From a virus: a stretch of DNA of 64,000 bases. The DNA is taken from positions 53,614 through 117,613 of the IMG/VR virus record IMGVR_UViG_3300032307_000723, one strand, 5' to 3'. The position numbers and the translations under genes were made by a program. Under the pieces are notes generated by a model. It was not told the origin of the DNA. It did not search any database and was given only the letters and a program-made list of their open reading frames with translations. Positions 5,520 to 23,792 of the stretch are shown here, piece after piece. How positions within the stretch are numbered: position 1 is the stretch's first letter; each line of letters begins with the position of its first letter.

Positions 5520-5669
5520 TTGAGTAAGCGGGAGTGGTCAATCAACAACCCGAAGAAGGTTCAGGTAAAACTATATTTAAAAGAGGACGGCCGAGCCTAT
5601 AATAGAGTAAGTAGGAAGTTAATGTTTTTTAGGAAGATTGAGTCAGTTTTTAACATTAACGAAACATAG
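5520..5669 (+). CDS. 49-residue basic protein with TTG start
   Basis: The frame from TTG 5520 encodes a compact, charged protein (SKREWSINNPKKV ... GRAYNRVSRKLMFFRKI) with coding-like composition. No ATG exists in the frame upstream of it. Its TAG stop at 5667-5669 overlaps the first bases of the tRNA-like gene, so translation and RNA processing may interfere. Function unknown. Confidence 0.5.
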   Translation: MSKREWSINNPKKVQVKLYLKEDGRAYNRVSRKLMFFRKIESVFNINET

Positions 5670-5769
5670 TCAGGAGACCATTGGTTGGTATCACCTCCCC
5701 AAGGTTGAGTAACGGTAAGGCCGACTCTTTATGGCAAAGACGGAACAGGTTCGAATCCTGTCCTGACTA
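5668..5769 (+). tRNA. tRNA-like gene with an insertion, isotype not assignable
   Basis: Acceptor strands AGTCAGG (5668-5674) and CCTGACT (5762-5768) pair perfectly over 7 bp. The T arm ACAGG-TTCGAAT-CCTGT (5745-5761) is canonical. A D-arm-like hairpin (GGTT / GGCC, with CGGTAA in the loop) lies at 5703-5722. However, about 28 bases that can form their own hairpin (GGAG / CTCC) separate acceptor and D arm. The anticodon-like hairpin at 5726-5740 has no U33. CCA is not encoded. It may be a tRNA with an inserted element, a decoy, or a decayed gene. Confidence 0.5.
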
Positions 5770-5880
5770 CAAATTAAAAAAAAAATAACAAAGGTATTGA
5801 CTTTTGGTGATGTTAGGAGATATTTATATTCTCACGGTTCGAGAGAACCAAAACACCCCAACAAAAGTTTCATAAAAAAT
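5770..5880 (+). other. Intergenic stretch with small hairpins, no gene seen
   Basis: AT-rich. It has a T-arm-like hairpin GGTT-CGAGAG-AACC at 5837-5850 inside a longer pairing of TTTTGGT with ACCAAAA. The 10-mer TTCGAGAGAA occurs here and again in the small RNA at 5938-5947. The open frames that cross this island are not credible genes. Confidence 0.4.
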
Positions 5881-5916: not shown

Positions 5917-5971
5917 CATATATCCCACAGATGTATGTTCGAGAGAATTTATGTGTGTGGGTTTTTTTTTT
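5917..5971 (+). ncRNA. Small RNA hairpin ending in a T run
   Basis: Transcription from the promoter at 5881 would start near 5917. The transcript folds with CCCACA (5924-5929) pairing to TGTGGG (5956-5961) and stops at ten T. The apical part contains TTCGAGAGAA. At about 55 nt it is close to a bare terminator, so it may be an attenuator-like or decoy RNA. Confidence 0.45.
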
Positions 5972-5993
5972 CAAAAAAAAAGTGTTAAAGTTT

Positions 5994-6024
5994 TTGACAA
6001 ATCAAAATAAATGTTTTACCTTTG
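5994..6024 (+). promoter_or_regulatory. Promoter of the permuted tRNA-like RNA
   Basis: TTG 5994-5996, 20-base spacer, TACCTTTG 6017-6024, an excellent match to the Bacteroidota consensus. Confidence 0.75.
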
Positions 6025-6060
6025 TCGAAGAAATAAAGTTCATAAAAATATTGAAAGATT

Positions 6061-6142
6061 GGTGTGGGTGTCGTGTCGAGGTTTCAAATCCCTCCGGATT
6101 TATCCGTAGCTCAGGTGGTAGAGCATACACCCACATTTTTTT
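6061..6142 (+). ncRNA. Circularly permuted tRNA-like cloverleaf
   Basis: Cloverleaf parts appear in the order: 3' anticodon strand, T arm, acceptor, D arm, 5' anticodon strand. TGTGGGTGT (6063-6071) pairs with ACACCCACA (6127-6135). The T arm is GAGG / CCTC around TTCAAAT (6078-6094). The acceptor is a closed hairpin CGGA-TTTA-TCCG (6095-6106). The D arm is canonical: TA-GCTC-AGGTGGTA-GAGC-A (6107-6125). Seven T (6136-6142) follow the closing stem, which also acts as the terminator. As written it cannot yield a normal 7-bp acceptor with CCA, so it is probably a tRNA mimic rather than a translator tRNA. Confidence 0.7.
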
Positions 6143-6146
6143 ATAT

Positions 6147-6221
6147 GACTACGATAGCTCAGCGGGTAGAGCAATCATTGGGAACAATGGTGTGCCGGTG
6201 GTTCGATTCCATCTCTAGTCA
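6147..6221 (+). tRNA. tRNA-like gene with non-standard acceptor and anticodon arms
   Basis: The D arm TA-GCTC-AGCGGGTA-GAGC and T arm GGTGG-TTCGATT-CCATC are canonical. The acceptor pairs as GACTA(C)GA with TCTAGTC, leaving one bulged C. The anticodon arm has one base too many: its stem closes around TGGGAACA or a shorter loop, and no U33 is in register. If U33 is placed by sequence, the anticodon would be GGG (Pro). CCA is not encoded, which fits the CCA-adding enzyme at 23061. Confidence 0.6.
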
Positions 6222-6228
6222 CAAATAG

Positions 6229-6353
6229 ATTACTCTGTGATAAGATAGCAGATAGACCTATTACAGCAGACTATCCCGACGGGAGTGCGAGTTTTAGGTA
6301 GTAAAGAATGGGTGACCTACGAATTTGTAAATCTTAAGGTCTTATCACAGATT
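6229..6353 (+). ncRNA. Structured RNA of unknown class
   Basis: An 11-bp perfect terminal stem (CTGTGATAAGA 6235-6245 with TCTTATCACAG 6340-6350) encloses GATAG / CTATC, CCC-GAC-GGG and TAGGT / ACCTA hairpins. This is a multi-branched fold. No start codon or coding signal is evident. It may be cut from the same transcript as the tRNA-like gene upstream. Confidence 0.55.
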
Positions 6354-6377
6354 AAAAAAAAAAGTTTTATAGAGTTC

Positions 6378-6413: not shown

Positions 6414-7332
6414 AAATTAGGGAAACCTAATACGTTCTTAGAAATTTTAGATTATCCATATAGTACTTCGGTATTATAAAAACGATAATGGGTGGTATAT
6501 CATCCTTAAATAAACCGGGAAACCGGGATAAAGTGAATCTGTTGTGTTGACAGGTTTGCGGTCTCAGAAATGGGACTCGAGTATACAAGTCGGATATCAC
6601 CTGACCTTCAGTATTGAGGGCAACGCTTTAGAGAAAGTGGTTGGGTGACCGGGCGATGTGGGTCGTCAGGTTGAGGAGGGAACTCCAATAAGAATAACCG
6701 ATAGGAACCAAACAAGAAATTAGGTCATCCAACTTAGTAATTGTGGGTTCCAATATCAGAGAGGACTTAAAACCGAAAGGTATGATAGAGAACGAGTGGT
6801 GTCGCTACTATCCTTACAAAACATCTACCAAGGTGTCAGTTTGAAGTAATCTTAAAATATGAGAGTGGGGACACTCTACCGAGTAGATTAGTATTTTGTT
6901 GTTCAAAAGATAACGAAGCTTACGACAGACCTCTACTTGGACACATCCACGACACATTTAACTTATAGGATATTTTAAGTAAAACTAAAAGATACATAAG
7001 CAAAAGTGTCTGTCAGGTATCATCGACAAGGTGACTACATAGTAACGAGCCGTTCGTTGCACAGGATGACCGCAAGTCTGAATGTATTCTTACGAAAAAC
7101 CTCTAAGGAGTCGAATCCCGAGTCAGTCCGCAAGATTGAAGAGAGTTGAATAATAAGAGAGTAGATGATATCTCAAGGAGTAATTGGTCTAACCAATTGT
7201 CACTGAGAATTACCATTCAAAAGATGGTGGAAAAGAAGGGAAACTATAATCCTTCCGAAGATTCTTAATAACACGAGTATTCTCATCGTATTAGCCAAAG
7301 AGGTGTTACATTAATTTGTAACACCTTTTTTT
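6414..7332 (+). ncRNA. Large ornate RNA, GOLLD/ROOL-like by size and context
   Basis: About 0.9 kb without a plausible coding frame, bounded by a promoter and a strong terminator. It is packed with capped hairpins: TTAGG-GAAA-CCTAA (6418-6431), a 7-bp stem with a TTCG loop near 6460-6477, CCGG-GAAA-CCGG near 6515-6526, GGAG-GGAA-CTCC near 6676-6687, GAGTG-GGGA-CACTC near 6863-6876, and AATTGG / CCAATT near 7182-7198. Known GOLLD and ROOL RNAs are phage-associated, 0.5-0.9 kb and often beside tRNA genes. I infer the class from architecture only and did not match a covariance model. Confidence 0.65.
7302..7332 (+). terminator. Strong terminator of the large RNA
   Basis: A 9-bp perfect stem GGTGTTACA / TGTAACACC with a 6-base loop, then seven T. 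Confidence 0.92.
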
Positions 7333-7364: not shown

Positions 7365-7646
7365 ATGAGAAAAGTAAAAACAAAAGATTCGGAAAGAATC
7401 TATACCGGACAATTTCGTAAAAAAAGAGTATTATCAATCTTTCCATTTATTATTATGGATGGAATAAAAAGTGATTTCCATTGGACCGGAAAATGGTTCC
7501 AATATGTTACGGTCAAACAACAAAAGATAAAAGACCGTTATTTGGAGTTCAATGAAGGGAATTACCAAAATTATTGGGGTAAATGGGAGACAACTTGGGT
7601 TTTTACCAAAATTATGAAAAATGAACAAGTCAATAAACATTATTAA
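7365..7646 (+). CDS. Small basic aromatic protein of unknown function
   Basis: 93 residues, Lys-rich, with a Trp/Phe-rich centre (FHWTGKWFQY). The predicted transcript starts at or next to the ATG. It overlaps the SmpB gene by 26 bases, suggesting coupled expression. No family recognised. Confidence 0.65.
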   Translation: MRKVKTKDSERIYTGQFRKKRVLSIFPFIIMDGIKSDFHWTGKWFQYVTVKQQKIKDRYLEFNEGNYQNYWGKWETTWVFTKIMKNEQVNKHY

Positions 7647-8058
7647 TAAGAAAGCCAGATTTGAATATGAATTTCTACAGACTGAGATTTGCGGTATTCA
7701 ATTGGTAGGTTCTGAGGTTAAGTCAATCCGTCAGGGAAAAGTATCCATATCTGAAGGGTATTGTTATTTCAAAGATGGTGAGTTATTCGTAAAGGGTATG
7801 AATATATCTGACTACGGGTTTGGTTCATTTCATGAGACCGTTAGGGACCGTAAGTTATTATTAAAACGAAAAGAGTTGAATGAATTGGAATCAAAACTTA
7901 TCAACGGACTTACCATTGTTCCTCATAGAGTGTTTCTTAATGGTAAAGGATTGATTAAAATGGAGATTGTTCTTGCTAAAGGTAAAAAGATTCACGATAA
8001 AAGAGAAAGTATTAAATCTCGAGACATTGACCGGGATATGAAAAGAGTTCAACTATGA
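7621..8058 (+). CDS. smpB: SsrA-binding protein SmpB
   Basis: SmpB delivers tmRNA to stalled ribosomes. The start INKKARFEYEFLQTEICGI, the EVKSIRQGKVSI strand, RDRKLLL, GLTIVPHRVF and LAKGKKIHDKRE are all hallmark segments in the right order over 145 residues. The basic C-terminal tail is short: it ends soon after the RD...DMKR segment. No tmRNA gene is evident in the window, so it may use host tmRNA, compete with host SmpB, or serve one of the RNAs in the island directly upstream. It overlaps the next gene by 4 bases. Confidence 0.93.
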   Translation: MNKSINIINKKARFEYEFLQTEICGIQLVGSEVKSIRQGKVSISEGYCYFKDGELFVKGMNISDYGFGSFHETVRDRKLLLKRKELNELESKLINGLTIVPHRVFLNGKGLIKMEIVLAKGKKIHDKRESIKSRDIDRDMKRVQL

Positions 8059-23060: not shown

Positions 23061-23792
23061 ATGTTTAAATTTTACGAAGTCGGAGGGAAAGTTAGGGATG
23101 AGATTTTAGGTCTTGAGTCTAAGGATGTGGATTATGTTGCGGTTCCAAGTGACAAATTACTTCAGGACTTTGACACTGCGGAATCAATGTTCTCAATGTT
23201 GGAACAATATTTAAGAGATGAGAAGTTTGAAATCTTTTTAGTTACCGCAGATTGTTTTACAATTAGAGCTAAGTTCCCAAAAGACCACAAGTATAGTGGT
23301 GTCGCAGACTTTGTTATGGCTCGAAAAGAGATTGGATATATCGAAGGTACAAGAACACCAATCGTTAAACCGGGGACATTATATGATGACCTTGAGAGAA
23401 GGGATTTTACCTTGAATGCATTGGCAAAAGATGAAGATGGGAAAATCATCGACTTCTTCAACGGACTTGAAGATTTGAAGAATAAGTATTTGATAACTCC
23501 ATTACCAATTCATCAGACATTTAATGACGACCCTCTTAGAATTTTGAGGGCAATTAGATTCTCAATTACAAAAGGATTTACAATTCCTATGAGAATGGCA
23601 CTTGTCATAGAATCGTACAACTACGATGAAAAGATGGGTGTTGTTTCAACAGAAAGAATTAGAGAGGAATTATTCAAGTGTTTTAAACATGACACTTTGG
23701 AAACATTAAAAGTTCTTAATGAATTTCCATTACTGAAAAATTACATCTTCAAGGATAAAGGATTATGGTTAAAACCAACAATGGAGCAATAA
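23061..23792 (+). CDS. cca: CCA-adding tRNA nucleotidyltransferase, class II
   Basis: It adds or repairs CCA at tRNA 3' ends. GGKVRD at 8-13 and DVD at 22-24 are the nucleotidyltransferase motifs. RRDFTLNA near 112-119 is the ribose/template motif B-C, then DDPLRILRAIRF and STERIREELF. At 243 residues it lacks the long C-terminal body and tail of bacterial enzymes, a compact phage form. It fits the tRNA-like genes here, none of which encodes CCA. Confidence 0.9.
   Translation: MFKFYEVGGKVRDEILGLESKDVDYVAVPSDKLLQDFDTAESMFSMLEQYLRDEKFEIFLVTADCFTIRAKFPKDHKYSGVADFVMARKEIGYIEGTRTPIVKPGTLYDDLERRDFTLNALAKDEDGKIIDFFNGLEDLKNKYLITPLPIHQTFNDDPLRILRAIRFSITKGFTIPMRMALVIESYNYDEKMGVVSTERIREELFKCFKHDTLETLKVLNEFPLLKNYIFKDKGLWLKPTMEQ

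What the first reader, a model, noticed from the sequence alone, without database searches (positions are those of the whole stretch)
6061..6142. Inside-out (circularly permuted) tRNA-like RNA as a stand-alone transcript
The T arm and 3' acceptor strand come before the 5' acceptor strand and D arm, joined by a TTTA loop; the ends pair through a 9-bp stem where the anticodon stem would be. The D arm is fully canonical, so this derives from a true tRNA. It has its own promoter, and the closing stem plus T7 makes a terminator. Known permuted tRNA genes occur in some algae and archaea; I know of no phage example with this form. The acceptor is too short to become a normal tRNA, so a decoy for a tRNA-binding or tRNA-cutting host factor is plausible.
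Basis: partly seen in the sequence, partly recalled or inferred. Interest (0 to 1): 0.92.

Follow-up and report, generated by a model that had tools for sequence, protein, structure and literature searches.

The report
Ro60-less Y-RNA-like tRNA mimic in phage
A large virus of bacteria carries a small RNA gene that folds like the body of a tRNA with its ends in the wrong place; this is the known 'Y RNA' kind of tRNA look-alike, but here it lacks both the usual partner protein Ro60 and the stem that would hold it, so it probably works alone, perhaps as a tRNA decoy.

Summary
Window 6061-6137 folds as T arm, acceptor hairpin, D arm, closed by an 11-bp stem where the anticodon stem would be. It is conserved in 25 relatives, with compensatory changes in the closing stem and acceptor hairpin. 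Its Bacteroidota-type promoter is conserved in most relatives; the 'terminator' T-run is not.

The claim that no phage example exists is wrong. This is the tRNA-mimic module of bacterial Y RNAs (Rfam YrlA RF02553: 38 bits, E 2.8e-6, below the gathering score of 69). A structure-only pattern found 33 other viral contigs with permuted modules. Of these, 21 encode Ro60 (TROVE), always on the same strand within 2.3 kb. Those score 31.9-50.7 bits, the range of this element.

This clade is unusual because it has neither Ro60 (0 of 33 related records, four of them module-bearing and at least 308 kb) nor the 5' stem motif (GGTTACTTC-like) of Ro60-adjacent phage Y RNAs. The module sits in a tRNA-mimic/GOLLD/SmpB-tmRNA locus; the large relatives also encode a T4 Rnl1-type RNA ligase.

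Best reading: a YrlA-type tRNA mimic freed from Ro60, acting as a decoy for a tRNA-binding host factor. Identity is well supported; function is inferred. New variant of a known kind.

The parts
5993..6024 (+). Bacteroidota-type promoter: TTTG (5993-5996), 20 nt, TACCTTTG (6017-6024)
   Evidence: sequence; TAnnTTTG conserved at the same distance in nearly all relatives, not in L007; the general consensus is from established knowledge
6029..6060 (+). AU-rich 5' tail of the predicted transcript; no Ro60-associated motif
   Evidence: best match to GGTTACTTC-like motif at background level in this clade; start site inferred
6061..6071 (+). closing stem, 5' strand (place of the anticodon stem)
   Evidence: fold; two compensatory pairs in relatives
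6072..6077 (+). CGTGTC, variable-loop equivalent ending in C48
   Evidence: sequence
6078..6094 (+). T arm (4-bp stem, TTCAAAT loop, 53:61 mismatch)
   Evidence: fold; invariant stem in relatives
6095..6106 (+). acceptor-stem equivalent closed as a hairpin (CGGA TTTA TCCG)
   Evidence: fold; A-U to U-A change and variable loop in relatives
6107..6124 (+). U8 A9 and canonical D arm
   Evidence: sequence and fold
6127..6137 (+). closing stem, 3' strand
   Evidence: fold
6136..6142 (+). T7 run after the stem; possible intrinsic terminator, not conserved
   Evidence: present only in window and L019 group
6051..6147 (+). match to Rfam RF02553 YrlA, full model, 38 bits (gathering 69)
6147..6222 (+). 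adjacent tRNA-like gene with 8-nt anticodon loop (GGAA); in relatives a tRNA-like gene with a hairpin insert in the D loop follows the module
6879..7289 (+). GOLLD RNA 3' domain, same strand, conserved neighbour
   Evidence: relatives
7621..8058 (+). SmpB gene (PF01668, E 7e-48), conserved neighbour; relatives also carry tmRNA

Best explanation
The element is a short (about 110 nt) phage RNA whose body is the tRNA-like module of bacterial Y RNAs (YrlA type): a tRNA elbow with the acceptor end sealed as a hairpin and the RNA's own ends leaving through the anticodon-stem position. Unlike known Y RNAs it has no Ro60-binding basal stem, and the phage clade has no Ro60. It most likely acts alone, as a non-decoding, uncuttable tRNA look-alike that occupies a host protein which binds the tRNA body. 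The likeliest targets are a tRNA-attacking defence nuclease or PNPase, which Y RNA tRNA-like domains are reported to bind. Shown: structure, conservation, compensatory changes, kinship in form with Ro60-linked phage Y RNAs, absence of Ro60 and of the Ro60-associated motif. Inferred: transcription, protein partner, decoy function.
For: YrlA covariance match over the whole model. The same permuted layout, found in 33 other viral contigs by pattern alone, marks Ro60 loci in 21 of them, with RF02553 scores of 31.9-50.7 bits against 30-41.5 for this clade (one fragment at 21.5). Conservation with compensatory changes. No TROVE in 33 related records, four of which are module-bearing and 308-322 kb, nor in 18 Bacteroidota genomes nearest by SmpB. 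Ro60-adjacent RNAs carry a GGTTACTTC-like 5' motif (16 of 20 score at least 7 of 9; background 4%), while this clade scores at most 6. Decoy side: PMC7790460 reports that the YrlA tRNA-like domain is not cut by an anticodon nuclease and suggests it could be a competitive inhibitor; PMC8394870 says the domain binds PNPase. The large relatives encode a T4 Rnl1-type RNA ligase, 4-8 kb from the module on the same strand in three of them, and a kinase-like ORF beside it in the one examined. The neighbouring tRNA-like genes also look unfit to decode.
Against: No transcript or binding data. The Rfam score is below the curated gathering score (true of the Ro60-linked controls too). The T-arm 53:61 mismatch departs from both tRNA and YrlA. 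The ligase is also present in G025, a sister genome without the module, and was not found in the window's own 117-kb record, so that link is loose. The GGTTACTTC motif was derived from the same set it was scored on.
Confidence: 0.6

Rival explanations
1. It is a true Y RNA that works through a Ro60 protein of the host, or a divergent Ro60 of the phage, redirecting a Ro60-PNPase machine during infection.
For: Same module as Ro60-linked phage Y RNAs; PNPase tethering is the described role of bacterial Y RNAs (PMC8394870, PMC7790460).
Against: No TROVE in the clade by profile or by protein; none in 18 nearest-SmpB Bacteroidota genomes, though the true host is unknown; no Ro60-type motif or internal loop in the stem.
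Confidence: 0.12
2. The module is a processing or insulating element: a stable structured 5' leader that protects or helps mature the tRNA-like and GOLLD RNAs behind it.
For: It precedes a tRNA-like gene by about 10-15 nt in most relatives and GOLLD in all five checked; the T-run terminator is not conserved, so read-through is likely in most.
Against: A leader needs no canonical D arm or tRNA elbow; in L001 and L007 the next RNA differs but the module is kept.
Confidence: 0.12
3. It is a decoy or partner in the phage trans-translation system (SmpB/tmRNA), the module standing in for the tRNA-like domain of tmRNA.
For: SmpB is 1.5 kb downstream in the window; tmRNA lies nearby in many relatives.
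Against: tmRNA's tRNA-like domain lacks a D stem, whereas this has a full one; G025 and G026 have SmpB and tmRNA without the module; no tmRNA found in the window's record.
Confidence: 0.08
4. It is a permuted tRNA gene whose RNA is circularised and cut into a working tRNA.
For: Order of parts matches permuted tRNA genes.
Against: Acceptor is 3-5 bp with a 2-8 nt loop, with no room for 7 bp plus CCA; no anticodon loop; no intron-type splice motif; the closing stem is kept by compensatory change.
Confidence: 0.02

Closest known systems
Bacterial Y RNAs of the YrlA type (Rfam RF02553)
   Same: T arm, sealed acceptor hairpin, D arm in that order, with the RNA's ends leaving through the anticodon-stem position; tRNA elbow residues kept; full-length covariance match.
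   Different: No Ro60-binding basal stem or motif, no Ro60 gene in the phage clade, 4-bp T stem with a 53:61 mismatch, 3-5 bp acceptor hairpin, neighbours are GOLLD and SmpB rather than Ro60.
Ro60-linked phage Y RNAs (the 21 viral contigs found here)
   Same: Same permuted module, similar RF02553 scores.
   Different: Those lie within 0.2-2.3 kb of TROVE and most carry the GGTTACTTC-like 5' motif; this clade has neither.
Permuted tRNA genes of algae and archaea
   Same: 3' half before 5' half.
   Different: Those have full acceptor stems and an anticodon and are processed to working tRNAs; this cannot be.
tRNA-like domain of tmRNA (including permuted, two-piece tmRNA)
   Same: tRNA mimic with a helix in place of the anticodon arm.
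   Different: Here a full D arm, no tag reading frame, no free CCA end.

Membership tests
Bacterial Y RNA, YrlA type (RF02553) | Permuted tRNA-like domain: T arm, acceptor hairpin, D arm, closed by the stem of the RNA's ends | tested here: met
Bacterial Y RNA, YrlA type (RF02553) | Score above Rfam gathering threshold (69 bits) | tested here: not met
   38 bits; but none of 21 Ro60-linked phage RNAs reaches it either
Bacterial Y RNA, YrlA type (RF02553) | Basal stem that binds Ro60 | tested here: not met
   plain 8-11 bp stem, no outer stem; no GGTTACTTC-like motif; binding itself not testable here
Bacterial Y RNA, YrlA type (RF02553) | Encoded near, or together with, Ro60 (TROVE) | tested here: not met
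   0 of 33 related records, protein search also negative; the window's own record is a fragment
Bacterial Y RNA, YrlA type (RF02553) | tRNA-like domain modified by tRNA enzymes and bound by PNPase | not testable with these tools
   described in PMC8394870; needs experiment
Permuted tRNA gene | 7-bp acceptor and anticodon arm recoverable after circularisation | tested here: not met
   3-5 bp acceptor hairpin with 2-8 nt loop, no anticodon loop
tmRNA | tRNA-like domain without D stem plus tag reading frame | tested here: not met
   full D arm present; no tmRNA match at this locus

The most novel reading that the evidence does not exclude
A clade of large Bacteroidota phages has turned the Y RNA tRNA-mimic module into a free-standing, anticodon-less tRNA decoy against tRNA-attacking host defences, working beside a T4-type tRNA repair ligase, phage tmRNA-SmpB and a GOLLD RNA.
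Probability: 0.27. Interest if true: 0.72.

Novelty: new variant of a known kind. Interest (0 to 1): 0.46.

Why it matters
Y RNAs are thought of as Ro60 tethers. A conserved tRNA-mimic module kept without Ro60 would show that the tRNA-like half has a function of its own and offers a natural 'effector only' RNA for finding its protein partner. It also shows that the YrlA Rfam threshold misses phage Y RNAs: none of the 21 Ro60-linked ones found here reaches it.

Tried and rejected
Chance fold: rejected. Algal/archaeal-type permuted tRNA gene: rejected on acceptor size and lack of anticodon. Conserved terminator: rejected. LR745206 (634 kb) as a Ro60-bearing relative with the module: its YrlA hit is two ordinary tandem tRNAs, and its Ro60 lies far away. 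RF02553 hits below about 30 bits can be tandem tRNAs, so layout, not score, was used for the census; three tandem-tRNA loci (L182, L572, L589) were left out. RtcB link as in the Salmonella operon: none in ten records. Nearest annotated phages by DNA: no homologue of the module. The founding Y RNA paper was not in the paper library, so YrlA facts are from PMC8394870 and PMC7790460.

Full report
Observation. The elbow-forming residues of a tRNA are all in place by sequence (U8, A14, G15, G18G19, C48, U54-U55-C56, A58); the one exception is pair 53:61, a mismatch throughout the clade. A loose four-stem descriptor finds only this site in the window and 2 sites in 150 single-strand Markov windows.

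Conservation. SmpB, 1.5 kb downstream, was used to fetch relatives. 25 of them carry the element, upstream of a GOLLD RNA (seen in all five checked) and SmpB. Promoter TAnnTTTG is conserved in nearly all. In eight distinct modules 98.8% of pair cells are standard pairs; two closing-stem pairs and one acceptor pair change on both sides; sliding the partners destroys the fit. T and D stems never vary here, so they are uninformative. The T-run after the stem is present only in the window and the L019 group; most relatives instead have a tRNA-like gene 10-15 nt on.

Identity. An Rfam scan of the locus gives YrlA (RF02553), full model, 38 bits, E 2.8e-6, below the gathering score of 69; relatives give 21.5-41.5 bits, all but one fragment at 30 or more. 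To judge this sub-threshold score I collected permuted modules from IMG/VR using only the T-loop, D-arm and spacing, then required the acceptor hairpin and closing stem. 33 contigs outside the clade were tested for Ro60. 21 contain a TROVE domain, and in all 21 the YrlA match is on the same strand within 2.3 kb, 20 of them within 1.21 kb. These Ro60-linked RNAs score 31.9-50.7 bits, none above the gathering score. So the permuted layout is the signature of phage Y RNAs, and this element scores within their range.

What is different. The clade has no TROVE domain (0 of 33 related records, four of them module-bearing and 308-322 kb; protein search also negative). Bacteroidota genomes nearest by SmpB have none either (0 of 18). 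Ro60-linked phage RNAs carry a GGTTACTTC-like motif on the 5' side of the stem (16 of 20 with at least 7 of 9 letters, background 4%); this clade is at background. That motif was read from the same set, so it is a description and not an independent test. By the membership rule I do not file it as a Y RNA: the tRNA-like module is met, the Ro60 features are not. It works like the tRNA-like half of one.

Surroundings. The large relatives carry phage tmRNA as well as SmpB, and a T4 Rnl1-type RNA ligase (five of five at 282-322 kb), 4-8 kb from the module on the same strand in three of the four module-bearing ones; a kinase-like ORF lies next to the ligase in G022. The ligase was not found in the window's own 117-kb record. 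The neighbouring tRNA-like genes have 8-nt anticodon loops and, in relatives, a hairpin inserted in the D loop.

Function. Papers report that the basal stem of YrlA holds Ro60 (Rsr) and the tRNA-like domain binds PNPase and is modified by DusA and TruB (PMC8394870), and that the domain is not cut by an anticodon nuclease and might inhibit one (PMC7790460). With the Ro60 half missing, the most economical reading is a free tRNA decoy for such a factor. This step is inference; nothing here shows the partner.

Novelty. The permuted tRNA-like RNA is a known kind and common in phages; a conserved version without Ro60 and without the Ro60 motif, in a GOLLD/SmpB locus, is a variant I found no record of in the papers available.

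Noticed in passing
window 6147-6222; L005:4652, L018:4795, L020:3889 and others: tRNA-like gene with an 8-nt anticodon loop holding GAA in register (GGAA, CGAA, TGAA) and no consistent U33; relatives have a 6-bp hairpin inserted in the D loop. Either a four-base-decoding tRNA or a non-decoding mimic.
   Followed up: partly
window 5668-5771: About 104-nt tRNA-like RNA with good acceptor and T arms but an expanded D-arm region and no standard anticodon arm; relatives have similar tRNA matches of about 100 nt (e.g. L007:3284-3386, L018:4172-4274).
   Followed up: no
window 5920-5975: Strong hairpin (z -4.3) with GTTCGAGA loop followed by T9-10, just upstream of the module's promoter; looks like a short structured RNA or terminator.
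   Followed up: no
window 6218-6356: Structured stretch (z -2.6) closed by a 13-bp stem, between the tRNA-like gene and GOLLD; no Rfam match.
   Followed up: no
L007:7297-7693 (-), L018:6921-7336 (-), G025:209677-210063 (-): Phage-encoded tmRNA near phage SmpB in large relatives; none found in the window's own 117-kb record.
   Followed up: partly
window 23061-23792: PolyA_pol head domain protein, probably a CCA-adding enzyme, another tRNA-maintenance gene in this phage.
   Followed up: no
L174 (G038), about 824-1000 on the - strand: Two YrlA-like modules directly in tandem on a contig without detected Ro60.
   Followed up: no
G076 (210 kb), 110989-111463: Two Y-RNA-like modules with a TTCCTTC-type stem motif but no TROVE found in a 210-kb record; perhaps another Ro60-free or divergent-Ro60 lineage.
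   Followed up: no
Rfam RF02553: The gathering score (69 bits) excludes all 21 Ro60-linked phage Y RNAs seen here (31.9-50.7 bits), so the phage side of the family is under-annotated.
   Followed up: yes
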